DNA of 64,000 bases from assembly GCF_003315175.1 (NCBI RefSeq), contig NZ_QNRQ01000007.1, positions 1 to 64,000 of the forward strand. The letters are read 5' to 3'. The notes under the pieces are model-generated. The model was given only the letters and a program-made list of their open reading frames with translations. It did not search any database and was not told where the DNA came from. Shown piece by piece: positions 96 through 38,422 of this stretch. The position numbers were made by a program, and so were the translations under genes. Within the stretch, counting starts at the first letter, position 1, and each line of letters starts with the position of its first letter. The DNA is from Eoetvoesiella caeni. Lineage in GTDB: Bacteria; Pseudomonadota; Gammaproteobacteria; Burkholderiales; Burkholderiaceae_B.

Positions 96-802
96 TCGAT
101 TACGAGAAATCCCAGCGAGACAGCGGTTGCTACGTGATTCATTAGTGCCACCATGGGCGCTATTTGATGCACAGATCTGGCTTGCCTAACGTAGTTCGTG
201 CCGAGGGCCTTATCGATTTCTTCGAAAAATTGCACACATAAGCTTCGCAGGGTGGCATCGTGAGGAACGCGAAGAACAACGAAGACTACTTGGTGGCATA
301 CAAGGTTTGAGCCTTGATAACAGGTATGAGCAATAACTTGGGGATAGCGCATTAGAAAAGTCGTTGCAAAGGTCGTTTTGCCCATGCCGCTAATGCCCAT
401 GATGAGATGGCCCCTTGCGGATGAAGTCCAGTCTCTAGGAAAAGGCACGCCACTGCCCGTGGCGCCTTGATGGGACGCCATGGCATGGCGCCGTTGTCGA
501 TCGATAACAGTAAGCGGATTACGGCCAATATAGCTTTGGCGAATAATAGTGGCCAATGCTAACCCAGCCTTTTGGAACTCAGGGAAGGGATGGACTATGT
601 CGTTCAAAATGGATAGTTCCATGATGCGGCTCACGTCACCGGCTTGCCTGTCTTTTATGGTCGGTCTGGGAGGGTAATGACTTAGCTCTGTTAAGAATTG
701 TTCTTTTCGTTCTTCGAGCACAGGCAGCGCTTCGATGAAAGGATTGCCTTTAAAGGAACGAACGCCTGTCTCTTGGTAATGTGCCGCCATAATGTCGCTC
801 AC
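96..802 (-). pseudogene. tnsC: Truncated TniB/TnsC-type transposition ATPase
   Basis: AAA+ ATPase that in Tn7/Tn5053-type elements links target selection to the TnsA-TnsB transposase. The Walker A motif GISGMGKTT is near residue 137, and GFLVID, the start of Walker B, is at about residue 236. After that the frame runs into repeated IS-end sequence and stops at position 20. The product therefore lacks the rest of the ATPase core, although family members run on for roughly another 70-100 residues. The start is a GTG at 802 overlapping the tnsB stop (GTGA), which implies translational coupling; an ATG at 790 is the alternative. The interrupted ATPase probably leaves the element immobile. Confidence 0.82.
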
Positions 803-3015
803 TGTCTACCCCTATTTTTGCGGATAATTTCCAAGTTTCGCAGCCGCTCTTGTTCTTCGAGCGCTTCCCACGTTGGTTCAAGTGTTGCTGGTACATGATC
901 TCTTGCCGCTGATTTACCGAACAGAGCCTCTTTCATTTTGGTTGTTTCGTGTTGTCTCGCCAGGGAAAGATCAATTTGGCTGAGCTTATCGCGATTTACC
1001 GTCGGCATTGCGTTGAGGTTCTTTTTGGGAGCCTTTGCCACGTCGGCGACCTTTTTCCGGATACGCTTTATTTTGCTTTCGTGGTCAGCTCTTGCAAAGG
1101 CAAGCGCTGTTTGGTCGGCTAAGGCAGCTTCTTCATCTAGAGTGAGCGACATCAATTCTCCTGCCCCGCCAACGCCAAGAGAGAAATGAGCCCATTCTGG
1201 TTTCGATGTTTCGATGAACAGTTCAGAGGGGTCTGTTCGGTCGATTCGCACTTCTACGCGTTTTGGACGAGCGGCTGATCTAAACGCCAGCTCTTGGGCG
1301 GGCTCATTAACAGGATAATAGAGCCGACTACAATAGCGAATAACGCCTTTAGCGATGCTCGCATCATCTATTCCGAGCAGTAATCGCCGATAGTCACCCT
1401 CTGCTAAAGGCGGAGTGCGTAATCCCGTAATATTTTTGAGTCCCCATAGGTATGCTTCTTTGGGAGTTGGCGGCACGCCTGCCCGGGCTAGAGTGCGCCT
1501 TCTGCGTAGAGCCGAATGTGGGCGGTTATTGTGGTCGTCAATAATTTCGATAACAGCTCTATATGCATCAGCAAGGGAGTTGACAGCGGTAGCTTGTGCT
1601 TTTTTTGCTTCTCTTTTGGTAGGTGGGTCGAGCGGCCTATCGGCGTATGTGCCTTTTAGCTTCGACATAAACATACGGCGCTTTATTTCCCGAATCGTGC
1701 GTTCGACGATCGCTTTCCCATCTGGGCATAGCGGAGGCAGTGGCGTAAGCTCAATCCGTAAATCGTCGGTGACGACTTTTTCCATGGATCGACTCATGAA
1801 GTCCGATCCACGATCAGGGCAAAGTGTGGAAGGGAATCGCCCGATGGGCCAGCGCTCGTCGTCGATATCCACTCCCATTGAGGCAAAGCGCTTTGTGCGT
1901 GATGTAAACGCGATAAGTAAAGCGTACTGAACTTCGCTCCATGACGGTGGACGCAAGGATAAATACACGGACACAACGAAACGGCTCCAGCGATCAATGA
2001 TCAGGTAAATAATCGGCTTACCGACAGTGACGGGATTTTCTTCATCGGTTACTAAGAATATCCGCCCGCCCGTTGCATCGATTTCATAAACCTCGCCTGG
2101 GCCGGCGGCCCTAACAGAACCTGTTCGTCCGGGATTACGTTCATACTTTCGAAGGTTTCGTGCCAGATCGTCAGTGAGTTGTAGATTTTCATTTACGTAG
2201 TATCGAAACTGACGCAGCGTTATGGGTTCCGGGTGCCTGTTATCAATATATTGACTAAAAGTGTCCGGATGCCTACGTCGAAAATAAGTAGAAAGATATT
2301 CTTGATGTACCTCCGTGAAAAACGCCGGTCCCTTGCGTAGGCTTCCTTTAAGGCAGGCCAGCATGTCAGATATGTCGTCGTCATCAATGATGAAATTGTT
2401 ACGTCCTAGTTCTGATGCCAGTGCCGGTTGTCGCCCTCGACGCATACTTGGTTGGGTTGGCGTCGATTCGTTTTTCTCGCCTAGTGAGTATGCGCGTGCT
2501 GCAGGCTTAGCCCCAGGTGGCAATGGAATTAACGCAAGTCTTGTTCCGCCGAAATAGTAGTAGCGCAGCACAAGTCGATAAAGGGTTAGGAAATTGACTC
2601 CCAACGTTTCGGAGCGATTGCGTATAAGCGAAGTGAAATGAGCCGACGAAAGATTTTCTTCATTTTTAAACGCATAGACCAACGGTTCGATGAGATTCCA
2701 GGCCGCTTCGATCGCTTCGGTGTGGTCATTTTTACGAAATTTGCCAATTCCTATGAATTGGTACGGCAGGCGTAGTTTCCCCCATTGGCCACCGTTATTT
2801 TCAATAAGATGGGTAACTTCGTTTGAAGAGATTCGTTTTGGCCGACGAGCGCTCCGCGCTTGTTGGGGTGTAGTCACCCATATTCCATATATGCAGCTGG
2901 TAAACACATGCGTGACTCTTAAATATTTGGGTTGCTGATTCCCCACGCGCAGTACCAGGCCTTCTGTGGGCGTTATGTTTCCTACCTTTTCGAACTCAAT
3001 GGGTATTTTGGACAT
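799..3015 (-). CDS. tnsB: TnsB/TniA-type DDE transposase
   Basis: Transposase subunit that binds the element ends and joins 3' ends to target DNA. It has an N-terminal end-binding region and a Mu/retroviral-integrase catalytic core. The DDE residues appear to be D in YEIDATGG, D in CPDRGSDF and E in AIVERTIRE. The C-terminal region is basic, as expected for contacting TnsC. I chose the ATG at 3015 (MSKIPIEFEKVG) over an upstream in-frame ATG at 3051, because it gives a modest 20-base overlap with tnsA and starts near the conserved part. About 738 residues, normal for the family, with no frameshift seen. Part of a tnsA-tnsB-tnsC operon. Confidence 0.9.
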   Translation of the reverse strand: MSKIPIEFEKVGNITPTEGLVLRVGNQQPKYLRVTHVFTSCIYGIWVTTPQQARSARRPKRISSNEVTHLIENNGGQWGKLRLPYQFIGIGKFRKNDHTEAIEAAWNLIEPLVYAFKNEENLSSAHFTSLIRNRSETLGVNFLTLYRLVLRYYYFGGTRLALIPLPPGAKPAARAYSLGEKNESTPTQPSMRRGRQPALASELGRNNFIIDDDDISDMLACLKGSLRKGPAFFTEVHQEYLSTYFRRRHPDTFSQYIDNRHPEPITLRQFRYYVNENLQLTDDLARNLRKYERNPGRTGSVRAAGPGEVYEIDATGGRIFLVTDEENPVTVGKPIIYLIIDRWSRFVVSVYLSLRPPSWSEVQYALLIAFTSRTKRFASMGVDIDDERWPIGRFPSTLCPDRGSDFMSRSMEKVVTDDLRIELTPLPPLCPDGKAIVERTIREIKRRMFMSKLKGTYADRPLDPPTKREAKKAQATAVNSLADAYRAVIEIIDDHNNRPHSALRRRRTLARAGVPPTPKEAYLWGLKNITGLRTPPLAEGDYRRLLLGIDDASIAKGVIRYCSRLYYPVNEPAQELAFRSAARPKRVEVRIDRTDPSELFIETSKPEWAHFSLGVGGAGELMSLTLDEEAALADQTALAFARADHESKIKRIRKKVADVAKAPKKNLNAMPTVNRDKLSQIDLSLARQHETTKMKEALFGKSAARDHVPATLEPTWEALEEQERLRNLEIIRKNRGRQ

Positions 3016-3802
3016 TGCGAAGCACCAATGGCAAATTAAGAGCCAACCCATGGCTTAAGGAAATGGGTATGAGTCCGCTCCATGCACAGAAACGGAAAGT
3101 GTCGTGTCCCGAATTAATTGGTAGGTGTAATCGTTGGCATACATCGTGGACGATTTCATCTAGTAGGGTGTTCCGTCGGTAGATATCGAGGAAGCATGCC
3201 GCAAACCGTATCGCTTGAGGATAGTCGGGTATATGTCGATGTAGAAACCAGGCCCGCATGAACCTGAGGTTTTTAAGCAATGTATCGTCGAATGCGGATG
3301 TGTCTACGAGCGTCCAAGGAATATTGTGTTCGGCACACCAACGATGCTCGACGGCCAAGCGGTTCAGTACAGAAGGATTGGTTGCATCATTTGGGGTTTT
3401 GATGCTTGCGGCACGAAAATAAGGTTTTCCGTCTATAAGTTCGGTAACCATGAAATCGATGGTGAACGGCTCGGGATAAAAGCCCTTATGAGGATGGCGG
3501 ACACCTAATTCTTCACATAACTCGAGCGTGCGCGTTATCTCGAGGATTGGGAATTGCTCGCGACAGTCCTGGGTAGTGCGTCTACGTTCTAGCAGAAAGA
3601 AGTAGGTGGTTTCGATCTTTGAAAGTAAATGGACAGATCGGGACGTTCGAATTCCTCTAACTATGCTGGAGGTCCCACGAGAGGGGACATCCCGGACTCT
3701 AAGCCATGGCTTGTACGCGGCATGTACTCCCAGCCCTTGACCACGGCGGAGCCTATTCCGAAAGTGCGGCATGTAAAGAGAGACGTCTGTATCCCATTCC
3801 AT
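2996..3802 (-). CDS. tnsA: TnsA-type transposon endonuclease
   Basis: Restriction-enzyme-like nuclease that cuts the 5' ends of a Tn7-like element, so that transposition is cut-and-paste. The nuclease core shows E in KIETTYFF / REQFPI, D in FTIDFMV and K in ASIKTPND, matching the E-D-K layout of TnsA. A C-terminal helical domain follows. The ATG at 3802 is preferred; an in-frame TTG lies at 3817. Its presence separates this element from replicative Tn5053/Tn552-type elements, which lack TnsA. It is the first gene of the operon and the one nearest the presumed transposon end. Confidence 0.85.
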   Translation of the reverse strand: MEWDTDVSLYMPHFRNRLRRGQGLGVHAAYKPWLRVRDVPSRGTSSIVRGIRTSRSVHLLSKIETTYFFLLERRRTTQDCREQFPILEITRTLELCEELGVRHPHKGFYPEPFTIDFMVTELIDGKPYFRAASIKTPNDATNPSVLNRLAVEHRWCAEHNIPWTLVDTSAFDDTLLKNLRFMRAWFLHRHIPDYPQAIRFAACFLDIYRRNTLLDEIVHDVCQRLHLPINSGHDTFRFCAWSGLIPISLSHGLALNLPLVLRNVQNTH

Positions 3803-16052: not shown

Positions 16053-16392
16053 GGTCTTTCGGACTGGCGCGAGCTGCGGTGCGGATCTTCCGGCGTCAGT
16101 GCTGCCTTTCAGACTGGATTCGAGCCGTTCGCGGCTACTAAGCCGCAGTCGAGCGCTGGCTGCCAAATATTGGCGACTTATGGGTTATGTATAATTTCGC
16201 CCTGCAGCACCTGCAATGGATGCTGCGTCGCTGCGACAGCGGCTTACGTGGACCCGGCAGCGCCGGGTGGCTCGGCCGGGCGCCTATCCCCCGGAAAACT
16301 CCAAGCGGATAATGGCTCGCGCCGAGACCAACTTCCAATCAGACCCCTCGGTACGATGGCCACGCTTGCCAGCTTCAGGTCAGTCAAAATCA
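16053..16392 (+). promoter_or_regulatory. Intergenic region with promoter -10 and long GC-rich leader of the SulP gene
   Basis: A TATAAT box is at 16190-16195, leaving about 190 transcribed bases before the SulP start. The leader has several possible hairpins: GCAGC/GCTGC at 16204-16226, GTCG/CGAC near 16228-16238, and CCCGG-N5-CCGGG around 16254-16268, followed by further GGCCGGG/CCCCGG pairings. No -35 at ideal spacing was found. I could not match the leader to a known riboswitch class. Confidence 0.4.
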
Positions 16393-17877
16393 ATGTCTTT
16401 TCTTTCCACATTTCGCCGCGCATGGTTGGCCAATCCTCGCGCTGATATTCTCGCGGGCATTCTCGTCGCCCTCGCCCTTATTCCGGAAGCCATCGGCTTC
16501 TCTATCATTGCCGGCGTCGATCCCCGCGTGGGCCTTTATGCCTCCTTTTCGATTGCGGTAATTATCTCGTTCGTCGGGGGCCGTCCCGGCATGATTTCCG
16601 CGGCAACCGCCGCCGTGGCGGTCATTGTCGTGCCTTTGGTCAAACAGCATGGGGTGGACTACCTCTTTGCGGCGACAATCCTGATGGGCGTTTTTCAGGT
16701 GTTGGCAGGCTTGCTGCGGCTGGATCTGCTTATGCAGTATGTCTCGCGGTCGGTGGTCACGGGATTCGTCAATGCGCTGGCGATTCTGATATTCATTGCC
16801 CAGCTGCCGCAGCTCATTAACGTCACATGGGTAACATACGCCATGGTCGCGGCGGGCCTGGCAATCATTTATCTCGTTCCCCGCCTGACAAAGGCCGTGC
16901 CGTCCGCGCTGATTGCGATCATCGCGCTGACCATGGTCTCGATCTACGGCGGCTTGCACGTCAACACAGTGGGAGACATGGGGCAGTTGCCCTCGTCATT
17001 GCCGCAATTCCTGATTCCCAATGTGCCCTTCAGCCTGGAGACGTTACGCATCATCTTGCCCTATTCGCTGACAATGGCCGCCGTGGGCCTGCTGGAATCG
17101 ATGATGACGGCACAAATTGTCGACGACCTGACCGACACGCCAAGCGATAAGCGCCGTGAATGCAAGGGTCAGGGGATTGCCAACTTTGTAACGGGATTTT
17201 TTGGCGGAATGGGCGGTTGCGCCATGATCGGCCAATCGGTCATCAACGTGAAATCAGGCGGTTCCACGCGCTTGTCGACCTTCGTCGCCGGAGCCTTCCT
17301 GCTGTTCTTGATCGTGGTGCTGGGCCCGCTGGTGGCAAGGATTCCGATGCCCGCGCTGGTCGCCGTCATGATCATGGTGTCCATCGGCACGTTCAGTTGG
17401 GGCTCAATACGGAATCTGCGCTCTCATCCATGGCAATCTTCCGTCGTAATGGTCACGACGGTTGTCGTTGTAGTCTGGACGCACGACCTGGCCCAAGGCG
17501 TATTGGCCGGTGTCATCCTCAGCGGCTTGTTCTTTGCCGGCAAAGTAAGGCGACTGCTGACGGTTGAATCGGAACTTTCCGCCGACGCAAGCATACGCAC
17601 GTACGTCTACTCGGGCCAGGTGTTTTTTGCTTCGTCAGAGCGCTTTGCCGAAACGGTTGACTTCAAGGAGAGGGTGGAGAAGGTAGTGCTGGATGTTTCG
17701 GCAGCGCATTTTTGGGACATTTCCGCCGTCGGCGCCCTGGATAAAGTGATAAGCAAGCTTAGGCGCGAAGGCACGGCAGTCGAAGTCGCCGGGCTGAACG
17801 AGGCCAGCGCGACGATGATCGGGCAATTTGCCACACATGACAAGCCCGATGCACCGCTTAAGCCCGCCAGCCATTAG
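16393..17877 (+). CDS. SulP-family anion transporter with STAS domain
   Basis: Inner-membrane transporter of the SLC26/SulP family for sulfate, bicarbonate or dicarboxylates. A long membrane domain of 10-14 helices opens with the family motif [27 protein letters not shown]-terminal STAS domain starts at about residue 390 ([16 protein letters not shown] ... [20 protein letters not shown]). The ATG at 16393 ([22 protein letters not shown]) is chosen because upstream in-frame residues look non-coding. 494 residues. The substrate is not readable from sequence. Confidence 0.9.
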
Positions 17878-32000: not shown

Positions 32001-34097
32001 ATGAATCAAGTGAATTTCTCTATTCAGCGGATTGCGGAACGCCCATTTTCCGTGTCGGTATTGCGCGCCGGCGGCGCCATTGTTCTGGCGCTTGGCTTGG
32101 TCGCCTGCAACGAGGACAGCCCTTCGGTTGCCGATGTGACTCCGGTGGCGCCGCCTTCTCAGGTCGTTACCTGCAAGGACTACGACGGCAATGCCGTGCA
32201 GGTCAAGCCAAAGACGGTCACCGTTTATAACAACTCCGCGGGCGATACGATTTATCCGGTGGTGGCAACTAGTAAAAATTTGGTGAATGAGTGGATTCAA
32301 GGATGCCTGCGTACGGCCGAGCCTTATCCGACCAAGCTCGTTTACAAGTTGTATGTAAACGAGGGCAAGGGCATACCGCCAAATTCTTCGGTGACGGTAA
32401 CACTTCCGCTGTATAGCGAACTGGCGGCGGGCAGCTATATTACCTGGTGGAATGGCGGGCGTGTTGTGTTGGCCGACCGGAACGACCGGCTGCAGGACGA
32501 CAAAGAGGACACCAAGCTGGCCACGCCGGACGGAGTCACCTGTCAAGGACAAAATACGGCCTGCACATTAAGCACTTATTCCAGCAATATCCAGTTCCCG
32601 GAAAATATATATGCACAATTGTCGGAATATACTTTCGGCGATTCCATCATCCCGGCCGGCCAGTCACTGCGGCTCTTGAAGCCGGAGAACGTCGGATACA
32701 ATATTTCTTATGTAGACCACGTTTATATGCCCGTGGCTATAGGGCCGAAAAACAACCCATACATCGGCTACAGCGGTTCGGCGCAGCCGCTGGTTGAGTT
32801 CAGGAACCTGCTGAAAACATTCTTGAATGCTCCCGCCGTTGGCGAAGGATGGCCTGTCTACAACCTGTATCAGACGAAACTGCCGGGCGGCTACAATATT
32901 TTTGCCCAGCGTGACGGCGTCTTGCATGCTACCGACGACGTACCCATCAAGCCGACAGGTGCCAATCCGCCGGTATTGACCGTAATGCAATGCATCAATG
33001 GCGGGTGTTCCAACGAGCAAATGAAGACTCTGCGCTATGGCCAGGCGGTTCAGCGCATGCAGAACTTATGGGGATATTGCGCCGGGGGCTGGGACGCCGA
33101 AGACATTTCCACGTACGTCAACGAGGATGTAAGTGCAATTTGTCCCGCGGCTTTGACGACCAACCTGACGGCCGTCAAGGATTTCTTCAAGCAAAGCCAC
33201 CAAAATTACCTGGCCATGTACGCCCGGGGCGAATGCGAAGGCACGACACCCAAAGTGCCGGTATTCAACTACTGGCAAGCCATTACCCACATCTATGGCT
33301 GGGTTCCATTTAACGAGGGCTGCGGCGCAGCGGCGAACCCCTTGGCCAAAACGACTATTCCAGGCTGGGATCACGCAGCAATCCAGTCCATGTACATCCA
33401 CCAATTGCAATATAACCATCAACAAGCAGCGGTCAAGGCGAACCCCAAGCTCTTGTTCAATCCTTATGTTGGATTGATTCATGACGACCTGAAAATGAAT
33501 GCTTACGGGTTTTCTGTTGACGATGCCGTTGGCTTCATGAGCGAGTTGGGCGATGGGCTGATTTTTGCGGTGGGAGGCACGCAAGGCCTTGAAAATTCAA
33601 AGCAATTTAGCTACGCGGACGGCTTTACCCTGATGGTCGGGGTGCCCGCGTCCCTGGATGGCCGTGCGAACAAGCCATTGATCAAAAAGTACGGGGTTTG
33701 CGTACTGGGTCAGGATGCCGGCGACATGAACTGCGAAAAGGACAAACAAGATGTCGTCTTGCCGGACAATAGCCAGATTGCAGGGTTCAGAGTCGGCACC
33801 GTGGCCAAGTATCCCATTAAAGTGCGCTTCACCGATGTGGACGACAACGTGTATTCCCTTCGTGTCAACGAGCAGTTCCAGACATGTCCCGACGGCATAC
33901 CGCTGAAGGATTGCCCTCCCAATAAGGCAACGCTAGTCGACAAGACAACTTGCCGGGTCGTCAACAGCAAAGGAGACACGCATGCCAATTCGGAAAAATG
34001 GTGTGTCGGCGCCAACCCAAATCAACAAAAGGACGTCCTCGAGCAGCAGTTGACCAAGAATTTCCTGAGCTATCCGCAACCTGTCAATTTTATGTAG
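32001..34097 (+). CDS. Large lipoprotein of unknown family
   Basis: I do not recognise this 698-residue protein. The N-terminus is a lipoprotein signal with LGLVAC (Cys at about residue 36). The next part has a beta-rich look (KTVTVYNNSAGDTIYPVVATS ... GSYITWWNGGRVVLADRNDR), which recalls thaumatin-like or GH64-type beta folds but not convincingly. There are many Cys in the C-terminal half, consistent with disulfides outside the cytoplasm. It is isolated in its transcript, next to an HDOD-GGDEF gene and a lipoprotein sulfatase. Surface attachment is inferred from the lipobox; the function is unknown. Confidence 0.7.
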   Translation: MNQVNFSIQRIAERPFSVSVLRAGGAIVLALGLVACNEDSPSVADVTPVAPPSQVVTCKDYDGNAVQVKPKTVTVYNNSAGDTIYPVVATSKNLVNEWIQGCLRTAEPYPTKLVYKLYVNEGKGIPPNSSVTVTLPLYSELAAGSYITWWNGGRVVLADRNDRLQDDKEDTKLATPDGVTCQGQNTACTLSTYSSNIQFPENIYAQLSEYTFGDSIIPAGQSLRLLKPENVGYNISYVDHVYMPVAIGPKNNPYIGYSGSAQPLVEFRNLLKTFLNAPAVGEGWPVYNLYQTKLPGGYNIFAQRDGVLHATDDVPIKPTGANPPVLTVMQCINGGCSNEQMKTLRYGQAVQRMQNLWGYCAGGWDAEDISTYVNEDVSAICPAALTTNLTAVKDFFKQSHQNYLAMYARGECEGTTPKVPVFNYWQAITHIYGWVPFNEGCGAAANPLAKTTIPGWDHAAIQSMYIHQLQYNHQQAAVKANPKLLFNPYVGLIHDDLKMNAYGFSVDDAVGFMSELGDGLIFAVGGTQGLENSKQFSYADGFTLMVGVPASLDGRANKPLIKKYGVCVLGQDAGDMNCEKDKQDVVLPDNSQIAGFRVGTVAKYPIKVRFTDVDDNVYSLRVNEQFQTCPDGIPLKDCPPNKATLVDKTTCRVVNSKGDTHANSEKWCVGANPNQQKDVLEQQLTKNFLSYPQPVNFM

Positions 34098-34450
34098 TGG
34101 TTTCAGGATCAAGCCGCCGCCTTTCTGCTGCGGTTTGACTCCTGGTGCTCGCGCTAGCCGGCGGGGCGATCCGTCCACATGGCAGGGTACTTTCCGCCAC
34201 GCTGAGTTTCAGCGATAAAAGGCTTGGTACGGTTCCGGCGTCGCCTCCAACAAACAATATAAACTGCCGCGCGCGGTGCAAGCCAGCACATGTTGGTGTG
34301 GGTGGACATTTCTTTGCTCTTTGCTGTGTTGCGCCTTGCGTGCAGTGGCATTGATGGCTGATAATCTGGCATCTTGCCCGGAGGAGTATCGCTGGCCAGA
34401 AGCGACAAAGTTTGGTGTGGTCACTGAGAAACATCGAGAGGGTTCACATA
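34098..34450. other. Intergenic region
   Basis: No gene supported; reading frames here lack any recognisable pattern. A hairpin (TCAAGCCGC / GCGGTTTGA, 34109-34138) follows the unknown lipoprotein gene but has no T-run, so its role as terminator is doubtful. Confidence 0.4.
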
Positions 34451-36004
34451 GTGGCAAGTATGCAGAAGTTGGACGAATCACAGATTATTGCGCAGTTGAA
34501 GTACTGCAAGCGTCTGCCTACGCTGCCCGCCGTGGCATTGCAGCTTGTCGAGTTGGCCGAAGACAGCTCGGCCGCGCTGGACGAGTTTGCCAAAGTCATT
34601 GCATTCGACCCCGCCCTGGTCGGAAAGCTGATGCGAACGGCCAATTCCTCGTTCTATGGGCTTCGGCGCAAAGTATCGAGCTTGTCTGAGGCCATCGGCT
34701 TCATGGGTTTGAATGCCACCATCTCGCTGTCGCTTAGTTTTTCATTGCGCGGCCTGTCTTGCGGGCAGGGCGATGGCGATCTTGACGATACCAATTACTG
34801 GAGCCGTTCGCTGCTGACGGCCCTGGCTGCCAGAACCATTGCCATAGAGCTGCGCGAACTCCAGCCTGAAGACTTCTTGTTGGCCGGCTTGATGCAAGAT
34901 ATTGGCGTGCTTGCCATGGCCGCCATGCTCGGAAACCCTTACGTCACGCTTTACAAGAACAGCCCCGACCATGCCAGCCTGCTGGAGTACGAGGCCGCGC
35001 GCTACGGCTTTGACCACGTGCGGGCAGGCGAACAACTGCTCAAGCATTGGCGGCTTCCCGCGCATATTCATGAAAGTGTATGGCGCAGCCATGCACCCGC
35101 CGACTGTGCGCAAGACCGCCGCACAGAGGATTGCAGCGATGGTATCGGGCGCCTTTCCGCTTGCGTAGCTACCGCAGCCTGCATTGCAGATGCATGGATA
35201 GAGGGGGCGTCGGCCGACGCGCTCAACGCGGCCTTCAGAACGGCGCAGTCTTTTTTGGACATAAACGCCGAGCAGTACCAGAATATTATTGCCTCAATGA
35301 GAGACGAGATGCCCGCCATGGAGGCGTTGTTTGAGTCTGAACTCGTAGATCCCGCGGTTTTGCAGAGCATCGGCGACAGCGCGCTAGAGCTTCTTACCGT
35401 GCGCAATTTGCACCTGTTACAAGCTTCCGCGGTTGCGGACGGACACATCCAGGCTCTTGAGCAGCGTATAGCGACGCTAGAGATGCAGACGCAGCGCGAT
35501 TCGCTTACCGGCCTTTATAACCGTGACTATCTCGAGCGCAAGCTGGCACAGGAGTTCGATCTCGCGTTGCACAGCCAATCGCCTTTTAGTGTGGTGTTCA
35601 TTGATATCGACTTGTTCAAGTCTTTCAACGATAGCTTCGGTCACGCAGTGGGTGACCAGGTACTGGCTACTGTTGCGCATCGCATCCTGACCATATCGCG
35701 GCAAACCGATACCGTGGCGCGCTACGGCGGTGAAGAGTTCGTTGTTCTGCTTCCTCATACGGATGTGGACGCTGCGCGGGCGATTGTGGAACAGATGCTG
35801 AAGAGCGTACGCGAGACGCCCTATTTGATAAGAGGCGATGCGCGCGCCCATATTACGTTCTCGGCGGGCATTGCCGCGCTTTTGCCGGGACGTACCGCCT
35901 TTAGTACGCCGGCCGCCTTGATAGACGCGGCTGATAGCGCCCTGTACAAGACAAAAGGGGCCGGGCGCGGGCACATTACTGTGCACGACTCGGGCCTCGC
36001 ATAG
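34451..36004 (+). CDS. HDOD-GGDEF signalling protein (diguanylate cyclase)
   Basis: The N-terminal HDOD domain (about residues 20-230: LPTLPAVALQLVELAED ... AFDPALVGKLMRTANSSFYG) is followed by a GGDEF domain (about 350-515) with active-site GGEEF. An RxxD inhibitory site lies five residues before it (RQTD-TVARY-GGEEF). It should therefore make cyclic di-GMP and be product-inhibited. No transmembrane segment. The start is uncertain: GTG at 34451, spaced from GAGAGGG, or ATG at 34460. About 518 residues. Confidence 0.87.
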   Translation: MASMQKLDESQIIAQLKYCKRLPTLPAVALQLVELAEDSSAALDEFAKVIAFDPALVGKLMRTANSSFYGLRRKVSSLSEAIGFMGLNATISLSLSFSLRGLSCGQGDGDLDDTNYWSRSLLTALAARTIAIELRELQPEDFLLAGLMQDIGVLAMAAMLGNPYVTLYKNSPDHASLLEYEAARYGFDHVRAGEQLLKHWRLPAHIHESVWRSHAPADCAQDRRTEDCSDGIGRLSACVATAACIADAWIEGASADALNAAFRTAQSFLDINAEQYQNIIASMRDEMPAMEALFESELVDPAVLQSIGDSALELLTVRNLHLLQASAVADGHIQALEQRIATLEMQTQRDSLTGLYNRDYLERKLAQEFDLALHSQSPFSVVFIDIDLFKSFNDSFGHAVGDQVLATVAHRILTISRQTDTVARYGGEEFVVLLPHTDVDAARAIVEQMLKSVRETPYLIRGDARAHITFSAGIAALLPGRTAFSTPAALIDAADSALYKTKGAGRGHITVHDSGLA

Positions 36005-36044
36005 CGAACATTATCGGCCGTGCGTGGCCCCGCGACGCCGCTGT

Positions 36045-38180
36045 TCAGTAAACCGCGTACGAGCGTTCGCAAGCCTTGTTCAGGTTGTTTTGAATAATGG
36101 CTTCGTCGATATGGTTGGTAAATCCGTCACGGCCATCGCCCACCACAAAATCATAGACGCTGGATAAGCCCCAGTCATGGGCGATTTTGCGCCAGTTGTT
36201 CAAATCCTGCGCATTGACCACGCCATCCTTATTGCCGTCGCCCGGGCAATCGGGCTCGGAGGCCAGGATTTTGTCCAAAGTGGTCCGTAAACTGTCGCGA
36301 ACTGCCAGTGTTTCCGCGGTGGGATTCTTGGCCAGCAAATTGCGCTCGCTCGTATCAAGCAAAGGCTCGGGTGCTGCCTGGTTGATTTCATACAGCTCTT
36401 CCACGGTATCCGTCTGGAAGCCGTTGGTCGCAGGATTGAAGTTGTAGGTGATATTTCGAACCAGTTTGTAGCGGTCGTTGCGAACAGCCATGGTGGGGTC
36501 AGGCAATATGTTGAGCAGATCTTTGCCTTGCCTGTGAAGTTCCTGGTTCACTTCGGCGCACATCTTGTAGCCTGCGCCGCCGTCGCCCCACCACGTGCCA
36601 TGATTGTCTTCGCACACGCTTTTGGAAGGCGCACTTTGGGTGCAACTGGTGCTGATCACGCATGGTCCGTTCCTAGCGCCGTGAGCCTGTATGTTGCTGC
36701 CGCCGATCGTGAAGTTGACCATGCGCAGGCTGGTCTGTTCCGGATTGGTCAGGTAGGGCAGAATGCCTACGGAATCGAGGGTGCGCGGCACCTTTTCATG
36801 GACGTCCAGGCCGGCGATTTCGCCAAATAACTGGAAGAGGTCCACGGCATTTACCATGTGTTCGACTTCACGCCCGGGTTGAACGACCTGCGGCCCGGCA
36901 ATGATCAGCGGGTCCCACACTCCGGTTTGATAGGCGGTTCCTTTGGCCTGGCCGGCTACAAACGGCAATTTGACCGCCGTGCCCAGCGAGCCATTGTCGC
37001 CAATGATGGCGATGATGGTGTTCGAAGCCTTGGGGTTATAGACCAGGCTGCCATTGCTGTCGCGTGTGGCCAAGCCTGTTTCGACCATCAAGCGTCCGAA
37101 CTCGGTGTCCATGGCCTCGGTCATTTTGTTTTGTATCAGCCTGGCGGCTTCCGGCGCACTGCAACTCCAGTCGTCCGATGCGGGGCCGTCATGGGCCAGC
37201 AGTGCGCCAGGCGGCTGCTGCCACGGCGTGTGGGCGGAGGTGTAGCTGACCGTTGCCATCCACGGTTTGTTGGCGGAGCGCGATTTAATCCAGTCGATGG
37301 CCGAATCGGTCTCGATTTGCGTGCGGTAGATTCTGGCTCTAGGGTCGCTTAACGGGACCTCTTCCGTTTTTTTGCCGTCGAAGATGACGAGGGGCGAGAC
37401 GTAGTAACCGTTAAGACGTGTGAAGTTCAGTGTGGTTGGCCGTTGGCCGCAAGTCATCTCCGGGACAAAGATGCCGCCCGAGGCCAGGCATTGCAAGCCG
37501 GCGGCATCCTGAGTCGGTTCGGTGCGTTCAATGACTTTGCAAGCGCCTTCGGCCTGATAGCAGGCCCCAGTGTCGGCGCCGCCCGCTTGTTTGCTGGGTA
37601 CGAAGCCGCAGGAATACGTGCCGTCGACTGCAATTCCGCCGGCCGAAGTATCGACCGAACCGGGAAGACCGCCGACCCAGCCATAGAAATAGTCCCAGCC
37701 GAGGACGTTGGGCCCTTCGATTCCCGCTTCATTGTTCTCGGGGCCGCCCAGATGATACTTGCCGAACAGACCGCTTTCATAGCCTGCCTGCTTGAGCAGT
37801 TTGGGCGTGGTCACGTCATACGGGGTAAGGTGCGAATTGGCAAGATCGCTGGGTCCGAGCGCCTGGTAGATGTTCGTGCGAATGGGGTAGCGGCCCACAA
37901 AGAAAGCGGCTCGGCTGGGCGAACATTCGGGCATGGTCCAGGTGTTGCGGAATCGTACCCCCGCGTTGGCAACAGCGTTGATGTTCGGCATGCTTGGCGG
38001 TGTCTTCCCACCGTAGCCGAAAACTTTCATTTGGTCGATTCCGACGTCGTCCATGATGACAAACAGGATGTTGGGCGGTCCGGAAGGGTCAAGGCTTGAT
38101 GCGACGTCGCTATCGCTGCAGGACGTCAGGAAAAACGCTGCCGCACTTGCAGCCAGCAATGTTGGAAGCGTATTGTTCAC
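36045..38180 (-). CDS. Lipoprotein sulfatase with C-terminal dockerin-like EF-hand
   Basis: Sulfatase-family hydrolase. The signal has lipobox FLTSC. Metal-binding Asp pair is in IMDDVGID, the formylglycine motif CSPSRAAFFVGR near residue 90, and KYHLGG, followed by the C-terminal subdomain. The last 60 residues contain a calcium-loop pattern GDGNKDGVVNAQDL and a weaker second one (VGDGRDGFTNHID), like type I dockerins. A GTG start at 38180, 6 bases after GGGGAG, is preferred to an upstream ATG at 38249. About 711 residues. The substrate is unknown; it needs a formylglycine-generating or anaerobic maturase encoded elsewhere. Confidence 0.87.
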   Translation of the reverse strand: MNNTLPTLLAASAAAFFLTSCSDSDVASSLDPSGPPNILFVIMDDVGIDQMKVFGYGGKTPPSMPNINAVANAGVRFRNTWTMPECSPSRAAFFVGRYPIRTNIYQALGPSDLANSHLTPYDVTTPKLLKQAGYESGLFGKYHLGGPENNEAGIEGPNVLGWDYFYGWVGGLPGSVDTSAGGIAVDGTYSCGFVPSKQAGGADTGACYQAEGACKVIERTEPTQDAAGLQCLASGGIFVPEMTCGQRPTTLNFTRLNGYYVSPLVIFDGKKTEEVPLSDPRARIYRTQIETDSAIDWIKSRSANKPWMATVSYTSAHTPWQQPPGALLAHDGPASDDWSCSAPEAARLIQNKMTEAMDTEFGRLMVETGLATRDSNGSLVYNPKASNTIIAIIGDNGSLGTAVKLPFVAGQAKGTAYQTGVWDPLIIAGPQVVQPGREVEHMVNAVDLFQLFGEIAGLDVHEKVPRTLDSVGILPYLTNPEQTSLRMVNFTIGGSNIQAHGARNGPCVISTSCTQSAPSKSVCEDNHGTWWGDGGAGYKMCAEVNQELHRQGKDLLNILPDPTMAVRNDRYKLVRNITYNFNPATNGFQTDTVEELYEINQAAPEPLLDTSERNLLAKNPTAETLAVRDSLRTTLDKILASEPDCPGDGNKDGVVNAQDLNNWRKIAHDWGLSSVYDFVVGDGRDGFTNHIDEAIIQNNLNKACERSYAVY

Positions 38181-38422
38181 GGCAGTCTCCCCTGGAGGGC
38201 GCGGCGCTGGGGCCGCCCCATGCCAGGCATTAGACGCCAAGAGTTGCAATACGCCGTTTAGCCTAGGCTGATGTTATTAGTATTGAAGCTTCTTAATTTA
38301 GCCTAATGGATTATTGGCGGGTTGGCAATGCAGAATGCCAAAATTCGCCAACGTCGCCGAAGTCGCCGCGTTCTTGGCGCTTTGCCGCTTTGGTAGGTAT
38401 TTTCGGCGTCCTGTACAAACGC

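What the first reader, a model, noticed from the sequence alone, without database searches (positions are those of the whole stretch)
32001..38180. Unknown 698-residue lipoprotein and dockerin-like sulfatase flanking an HDOD-GGDEF gene
Two large surface-type lipoproteins, one of no family I know, flank a predicted cyclic di-GMP synthase. The arrangement hints at a regulated surface function, perhaps on a sulfated polymer, that I cannot match to a described system.
Basis: inference. Interest (0 to 1): 0.65.

Follow-up and report, generated by a model that had tools for sequence, protein, structure and literature searches.

The report
Surface lipoprotein resembling a beta-glucan enzyme
The unknown 698-residue lipoprotein is probably a distant relative of enzymes that cut beta-1,3-glucan, a polymer of fungal and algal cell walls, and its position beside a cyclic di-GMP gene and a sulfatase looks like a local accident and not a conserved system.

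Summary
In 27 public loci with a relative of the 698-residue lipoprotein, no HDOD-GGDEF or sulfatase orthologue lies in the flanks held; 6 of those 27 genomes encode the sulfatase at all. The lipoprotein has no Pfam or NCBIfam family. A model of residues 65-535 matches GH64 beta-1,3-glucanases best (Z 11.8-10.4), with thaumatin-like proteins next (Z 9.9-8.9); later rows fall to 6.3 and below. The residues that act as acid and base in GH64 correspond to Glu209 and Asp239, invariant in 25 of 25 close relatives and 14 of 14 rows of a set reaching down to 32% identity. Best reading: an outer-membrane-anchored beta-1,3-glucan hydrolase or binder with an extra C-terminal beta-domain. The family is patchy: lipoproteins in Burkholderiales, apparently freely secreted in Legionella, so it probably spread sideways. 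It misses Pfam's GH64 threshold and Foldseek alone finds nothing significant, so I place it beside GH64, not in it. Activity is untested.

The parts
32001..34097 (+). Gene of the 698-residue lipoprotein
   Evidence: ORF; relatives in other genomes; no Pfam/NCBIfam family
32001..32108 (+). Signal sequence with lipobox LVAC, Cys36
   Evidence: read in the sequence; a lipobox pattern in 10 of 11 non-Legionella loci the script examined and in 0 of 14 Legionella loci
32193..33605 (+). GH64/thaumatin-like domain (residues 65-535)
   Evidence: model m9b8b469b317a, pLDDT 77.1, pTM 0.77; VIA-align rows 1-32 are GH64 enzymes, MoHrip2 and thaumatin-like proteins, Z 11.8-8.9
32625..32627 (+). Glu209, equivalent of the GH64 catalytic proton donor
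   Evidence: aligned with the Glu of DWxEF in 4 of 4 GH64 proteins; E in 25 of 25 and 14 of 14 relatives; codon checked
32715..32717 (+). Asp239, equivalent of the GH64 catalytic base
   Evidence: aligned with the Asp of TQVD in 3 of 4 GH64 proteins, Asn in the fourth; D in 25 of 25 and 14 of 14 relatives; codon checked
33480..33524 (+). His494 to Asp508, motif H...YGFxxDD shared with GH64
   Evidence: hhalign score 33.2 against a maximum of 24.0 in 150 column shuffles; sub-threshold PF16483 matches cover this stretch in three relatives. Residues 502-511 are poorly modelled (pLDDT under 50)
33618..34094 (+). C-terminal beta-domain of unassigned fold (about residues 540-698)
   Evidence: strands in the full model; nearly all missing from the 502-residue relative L045; only weak fold matches, Z 4.8 or less
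34412..36004 (+). HDOD-GGDEF gene, neighbour, not part of a conserved unit (likely start 34460)
   Evidence: Pfam HDOD and GGDEF; RQTDTVARYGGEEF, i.e. GGEEF site and RxxD site
36045..38249 (-). Sulfatase lipoprotein, neighbour, one of four paralogues in this genome
   Evidence: Pfam Sulfatase; CSPSR motif; four paralogues at E <= 1e-60; an FGE-sulfatase gene lies between two of the others

Best explanation
The 698-residue protein is an exported, outer-membrane-anchored glycan enzyme or binder of the GH64/thaumatin-like superfamily. Roughly its first 500 residues form the superfamily's beta-sandwich with a large, mainly helical insertion. An acidic cleft carries Glu209 (acid) and Asp239 (base), set up to cleave beta-1,3-glucan by inversion as GH64 enzymes do. 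The C-terminal beta-domain probably helps binding or placement. In Burkholderiales the protein is fixed to the cell by a lipid; in Legionella it has an ordinary signal peptide and is released. Likely targets are beta-1,3-glucans of fungi, oomycetes, algae or protists met in soil and water. The HDOD-GGDEF gene and the sulfatase beside it are unrelated neighbours. Shown: aligned fold of a predicted model, conserved residues, two kinds of export signal, lack of a conserved neighbourhood. Inferred: catalysis, substrate, surface exposure, role of the C-terminal domain, ecology.
For: I noted the GH64/thaumatin guess from motifs before any structure prediction or fold search. Full-length model: GH64 enzyme 3gd0 is first (Z 7.6, rmsd 4.8, 246 aligned), next row 4.8. 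Domain model: rows 1-32 of the 50 shown are six GH64 entries (7vtk Z 11.8, rmsd 4.6, 278 aligned; 3gd0 11.6; 5h9y 11.2; 7vtl 10.9; 5h9x 10.7; 5h4e 10.4), the elicitor MoHrip2 (10.6) and thaumatin-like proteins (9.9-8.9), then a drop to 6.3, 6.0 and 4.6. Two MAFFT modes put Glu209, Asn234, Asp239, His494, Tyr502, Phe504, Asp507 and Asp508 on the GH64 motif residues, and hhalign without a confidence cut-off runs co-linearly through the same sites. The Glu and Asp roles are stated for the GH64 enzyme GluY (Glu153, Asp169) in a passage of PMC8394091; in the stretch shown, crystal sequence 5h9y has Ala where 5h9x has that Glu. Sub-threshold PF16483 matches at the expected place occur in L068 (E 0.00052), L035 (0.0079) and L028 (0.07). 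Arg154, Glu209, Asp239, His494, Tyr502 and Asp508 are invariant in 14 of 14 diverse members.
Against: The window protein itself has no PF16483 match; of 11 relatives scanned (5, L045 among them; 6) three match below the cut-off of 27 bits (best 19.8) and eight do not match. Foldseek alone gives no match with E <= 0.001; for the domain model 3gd0 is second at E 0.035, prob 0.80, TM 0.25-0.31, behind an unrelated viral capsid. Sequence searches find no related solved structure. hhalign probability is only 9.9%, over 24 columns. Acid and base are 30 residues apart, against 16 in GluY. Thaumatin-like proteins, most of them not enzymes (recalled), keep similar acidic residues; the row TLP_L043 does. 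The model is of middling confidence (pLDDT 77) and poor (under 50) at residues 289-292, 295-309, 321-325, 432-436 and 502-511, the last of which holds the YGFxxDD motif itself.
Confidence: 0.6

Rival explanations
1. A non-catalytic beta-glucan-binding protein (thaumatin-like lectin or adhesin) that fixes the cell to fungal or algal surfaces.
For: Thaumatin-like proteins match almost as well (Z 9.9-8.9) and one aligned GH64/TLP-type protein keeps the same acidic positions (TLP_L043); the lipid anchor and extra C-terminal beta-domain would suit an adhesin.
Against: GH64 enzymes align over more residues (240-278 against 178-201), and the large insertion before the YGFxxDD motif resembles GH64; Glu209 and Asp239 do not vary in two overlapping alignments of 25 and 14 rows.
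Confidence: 0.2
2. An enzyme of the same fold acting on another glycan, for instance a bacterial exopolysaccharide or a sulfated polymer processed together with the sulfatase.
For: All 6 lipoprotein carriers among 151 genomes of the family also carry the sulfatase, against 34 of 151; the sequence distance from GH64 is large.
Against: 21 of 27 lipoprotein-bearing genomes lack the sulfatase, including 14 of 14 Legionella; no conserved neighbour found across lineages. The characterised GH64 enzymes cut beta-1,3-glucan (PMC8394091, passages).
Confidence: 0.15
3. The three genes form a cyclic di-GMP-regulated surface system.
For: Adjacency in this window; GGEEF and RxxD sites intact in the HDOD-GGDEF protein.
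Against: No shared neighbourhood in 27 loci; HDOD-GGDEF orthologue in only 2 of 10 other family genomes, 112 kb away in one and on another contig in the other; sulfatase on the opposite strand.
Confidence: 0.03

Closest known systems
GH64 endo-beta-1,3-glucanases (PF16483; LPHase 3gd0, 5h9x, 7vtk, GluY)
   Same: Predicted fold, large insertion, acid Glu and base Asp, H...YGFxxDD motif, export.
   Different: No significant sequence match, 30 against 16 residues between acid and base, lipid anchor, extra C-terminal beta-domain; found here in Burkholderiales and Legionella.
Thaumatin-like proteins (thaumatin, osmotin, bacterial 7p22)
   Same: Beta-sandwich and acidic cleft; Z 9.9-8.9.
   Different: Shorter; the window protein has a longer insertion and a further domain, and no Pfam thaumatin match.
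'Thaumatin' proteins reported in Legionella (lpg1328/LegT, llo0044 and others; passages of PMC4256840 and PMC2824747)
   Same: Same superfamily name in the same genus.
   Different: Named there by domain or InterPro motif; this family has no Pfam match. Whether any of them is a member was not tested; the injected effector was not fetched.
Formylglycine-dependent sulfatases (PF00884)
   Same: The neighbour gene: CSPSR motif, and an FGE-sulfatase gene in the genome.
   Different: Not tied to the lipoprotein outside the window's family.

Membership tests
GH64 | Match to PF16483 above the curated cut-off (27 bits) | tested here: not met
   Window protein: no match at E up to 1; best of 11 scanned relatives 19.8 bits
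GH64 | GH64 fold | tested here: met
   VIA-align Z 11.8-10.4 to six GH64 entries, well above unrelated rows. It is a predicted model of middling confidence, and Foldseek alone is not significant
GH64 | Catalytic Glu and Asp | tested here: met
   Glu209 and Asp239 align with them and are invariant; roles from a passage of PMC8394091
GH64 | Spacing of about 16 residues between Glu and Asp (GluY 153 and 169) | tested here: not met
   30 residues in the window protein (209 and 239)
[quoted passage not shown]
   needs an enzyme assay
Thaumatin-like proteins (PF00314) | Pfam thaumatin match | tested here: not met
   no family at E up to 1
Thaumatin-like proteins (PF00314) | Eight conserved disulfides (recalled) | tested here: inconclusive
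   Of 15 cysteine positions that I examined, 14 are Cys in 25 of 25 close relatives and one in 24; 8 of the 15 are Cys in at least 13 of 14 diverse members. Pairing unknown
Conserved lipoprotein / HDOD-GGDEF / sulfatase system | Genes adjacent in other genomes | tested here: not met
   0 of 27 loci within the flanks held
Conserved lipoprotein / HDOD-GGDEF / sulfatase system | Genes co-occur in genomes | tested here: not met
   sulfatase in 6 of 27 lipoprotein-bearing genomes, though in 6 of 6 within the sampled family; HDOD-GGDEF orthologue in 3 of the 6 lipoprotein carriers of that family, the window's own included
Dockerin type I (sulfatase C-terminus) | PF00404 above cut-off | tested here: not met
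   13.6 bits against 22.9
Sulfatase (PF00884) | Pfam match and Cys-x-Pro-x-Arg motif | tested here: met
   E 1.5e-30; CSPSR at residue 109; FGE-sulfatase gene in the genome

The most novel reading that the evidence does not exclude
This is a new carbohydrate-active enzyme family beside GH64: a surface-anchored (Burkholderiales) or released (Legionella) beta-1,3-glucanase with its own C-terminal glycan-binding domain, passed between bacteria that share soil and water with fungi, algae and amoebae, and used to attack or feed on their walls.
Probability: 0.4. Interest if true: 0.55.

Novelty: new variant of a known kind. Interest (0 to 1): 0.36.

Why it matters
A protein family with no Pfam or NCBIfam match gets a fold, two candidate catalytic residues and a substrate class that one assay can test. 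If active, it would extend beta-1,3-glucan attack to anchored lipoproteins of Burkholderiales and exported proteins of Legionella, two groups that meet fungi and protists.

Tried and rejected
Tried without result: plasmid and phage records for the lipoprotein (no match at E 1e-5); solved structures by sequence (nothing significant); a conserved neighbour. In one search no protein cluster besides the family itself is shared by more than 6 of 28 neighbourhoods, and the four clusters with 6 are confined to one lineage each: DUF2063, MbnB-like and one unidentified cluster in Legionella loci, an AraC-type regulator in Comamonadaceae-type loci (one member of each of the three named clusters was scanned). 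That clustering took the longest non-overlapping ORFs, which in GC-rich loci include shadow ORFs, so a small conserved neighbour could have been missed. A promoter/terminator scan gave 5 and 10 sites against 4.0 and 8.1 in shuffles (chance). I looked for a link between this family and the L. longbeachae 'thaumatin' gene llo0044 through its neighbour llo0042 (a peptidase S28 in PMC4256840); no such gene was recognised by eye among the ORFs of L030, and no family search was made for it. GH64 is rare in the genomes sampled (2 of 41 and 1 of 299), so the GH64 profile has only four rows. Rejected: a cytolysin/aegerolysin-like C-terminal domain, because such matches (Z about 3-4) are mixed with unrelated folds.

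Papers: the searches and 100 of the open-licence PMC library showed, in their listings, no paper that describes this family ('glycoside hydrolase family 64' with Legionella: 0 papers; GH64 with Legionella: 1; GH64 with Burkholderiales: 3). I read passages of PMC8394091, PMC4256840 and PMC2824747, no paper in full, so mention elsewhere is not excluded.
Full report
What is there. The three ORFs exist at the given coordinates. The middle one has HDOD and GGDEF domains; its site reads RQTDTVARYGGEEF, that is a GGEEF active site preceded by RxxD, so from established knowledge of the family an active, product-inhibited diguanylate cyclase is expected. The third is a sulfatase with the CSPSR motif on the opposite strand. 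It is one of four paralogues in this genome at E <= 1e-60, and a gene of the FGE-sulfatase family, whose known members mature sulfatases, lies between two of the others. The 698-residue protein has a signal sequence with lipobox LVAC (by eye) and no match in Pfam or NCBIfam at E up to 1.

Is the arrangement conserved? No. One scan of a collection of bacterial and archaeal genomes gave 27 loci with a relative of the lipoprotein, 14 in Legionella and 13 elsewhere. Twelve of the 13 are labelled Burkholderiales genera or lineages; one, L025, is labelled a Moraxellaceae MAG but sits next to Comamonas in the tree. tblastn of the window's neighbours against all 27 loci (E <= 1e-6) found no orthologue of the HDOD-GGDEF protein or the sulfatase; the only match of the former is a 29% match of its GGDEF part in L034. 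Nineteen of the 27 loci hold 10 kb on both sides; eight are shorter on at least one side. Of 11 chosen family genomes, three have an HDOD-GGDEF orthologue at E <= 1e-60: the window's own, G035 (about 112 kb from its lipoprotein gene on the same contig) and G066 (another contig of a fragmented assembly). The sulfatase (E <= 1e-150) is in 34 of 151 sampled family genomes, including all 6 with the lipoprotein (Fisher p 9e-5), but (E <= 1e-100) in only 6 of the 27 lipoprotein-bearing genomes and in none of 14 Legionella. The association inside the family may be kinship. The one sampled member of the same genus (G016) has none of the three at the thresholds used.

What is the lipoprotein? Before any structure prediction I noted motifs that recall GH64/thaumatin-like proteins. 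An AlphaFold2 model of residues 56-698 on 25 sequences had pLDDT 73.4 and pTM 0.66. Foldseek found nothing with E <= 0.001, but the structural aligner put the GH64 enzyme 3gd0 first at Z 7.6, next row 4.8. Residues 65-535 alone gave a better model (pLDDT 77.1, pTM 0.77). Again Foldseek had nothing with E <= 0.001; 3gd0 was second at E 0.035. VIA-align's first 32 rows are six GH64 entries, MoHrip2 and thaumatin-like proteins, Z 11.8 to 8.9, followed by 6.3, 6.0 and 4.6. The tool warns that it re-ranks Foldseek's own list and that Z below 8 may mean little; the matches here lie above that and apart from the rest. The stretch 502-511, which holds the YGFxxDD motif, is poorly modelled, so the motif's place in the fold rests on sequence.

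Catalytic residues. Four GH64 proteins, two found with PF16483 and two annotated beta-1,3-glucanases from plasmids found by tblastn (L049 is a stretch of a longer protein), share DWxEF, N-x-TQV[DN] and H...AYGF[PS]xDD. Two MAFFT modes place the window's Glu209, Asn234, Asp239, His494, Tyr502, Phe504, Asp507 and Asp508 on these, and hhalign without a confidence cut-off is co-linear through the same sites. The hhalign score is 32.2 with the close family (100 column shuffles: maximum 26.7) and 33.2 with a set reaching down to 32% identity (150 shuffles: maximum 24.0); its reported probability is low (9.9%) and its confident part covers only 24 columns around the C-terminal motif. A passage of PMC8394091 names Glu153 and Asp169 of GluY as proton donor and nucleophile/base, 'as shown in other GH64' enzymes. 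Glu209 and Asp239 are invariant in 25 of 25 close relatives and in 14 of 14 of the diverse set, and so are Arg154, His494, Tyr502 and Asp508 (the sets overlap). Thaumatin-like proteins keep similar acidic positions; a protein with a partial PF16483 match and ricin-type lectin domains, L043, labelled TLP by me, does so. Conservation therefore shows an acidic cleft, not catalysis.

Shape and relatives. Distant relatives of 32-33% identity exist in the family around L. steelei, two of them with long extra N-terminal regions (L064-L069). One of 502 residues, without most of the C-terminal domain, is in another family of the phylum (L045). The C-terminal beta-domain (about 540-698) has no convincing fold match and was not folded alone. 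The family is patchy: 6 of 151 genomes of the window's family, 2 of 398 across the phylum with the window's own included, 18 of 112 in the family around L. steelei, 12 of them with matches along nearly the whole profile (one of these has an in-frame stop). In the tree the 13 Legionella rows form one side of a branch with support 99/100; the outgroup branch is very long, so the direction of any transfer cannot be told. Identity of the window protein to Legionella rows (64-71%) is close to that to Alcaligenaceae rows (69-72%) and higher than that to four of six Comamonadaceae rows (57-61%; the other two 65 and 68%). Patchiness and this pattern suggest horizontal spread (inference).

Anchoring. 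A lipobox pattern was found in 10 of the 11 non-Legionella loci that the script examined; the eleventh, L032, has MSGC, just outside the pattern, and the two not examined show LTAC (L029) and LSGC (L034) by eye. None of 14 Legionella loci has the pattern; their start regions look like cleaved signal peptides (by eye; no signal-peptide program was run). So the protein seems to be exported in both groups and tethered only in one.

Mechanism. Most likely an exported enzyme that hydrolyses beta-1,3-glucan by inversion, with Glu209 as acid and Asp239 as base, held on the outer membrane. My odds: GH64/thaumatin superfamily fold about 0.9; beta-1,3-glucan hydrolase about 0.5; beta-glucan binder without catalysis about 0.2; another glycan about 0.15. 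Against it: below Pfam's GH64 threshold, a spacing of 30 against 16 between acid and base, no significant Foldseek or sequence-profile match. I therefore place it next to GH64 and not in it.

Verdict. Interest 0.36.

Noticed in passing
L026:7544-10462, L027:12024-14900: A protein of 973 and 959 residues with a lipobox (LASC) and no Pfam match follows directly downstream of the family gene in Comamonas and Acidovorax; a serine hydrolase (Pfam Beta-lactamase) gene precedes the family gene in both.
   Followed up: partly
L011, L014-L017, L033, about 0.5-2.4 kb upstream, opposite strand: An MbnB/TglH-type enzyme and a DUF2063 protein in six Legionella loci, with a cysteine-rich KNGCKGK repeat protein in five of them, lie divergently from the family gene; it recalls a RiPP or bufferin operon (name recalled).
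   Followed up: partly
L030:9884-11899 (genome G669): The Legionella longbeachae copy is interrupted by one in-frame stop; the other Legionella copies are open along the match.
   Followed up: no
G000:C6:184491-190043: Two sulfatase paralogues face each other with an FGE-sulfatase family gene between them.
   Followed up: partly
window 799-3051, minus strand: A 750-residue ORF without a Pfam match at E 1e-4.
   Followed up: no
window 16216-17877: A sulfate permease with STAS domain lies 18 kb from the sulfatase; a link is not shown.
   Followed up: no
L025: A MAG labelled Moraxellaceae carries a copy very close to that of Comamonas; the contig may be binned wrongly, or the gene recently transferred.
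   Followed up: no
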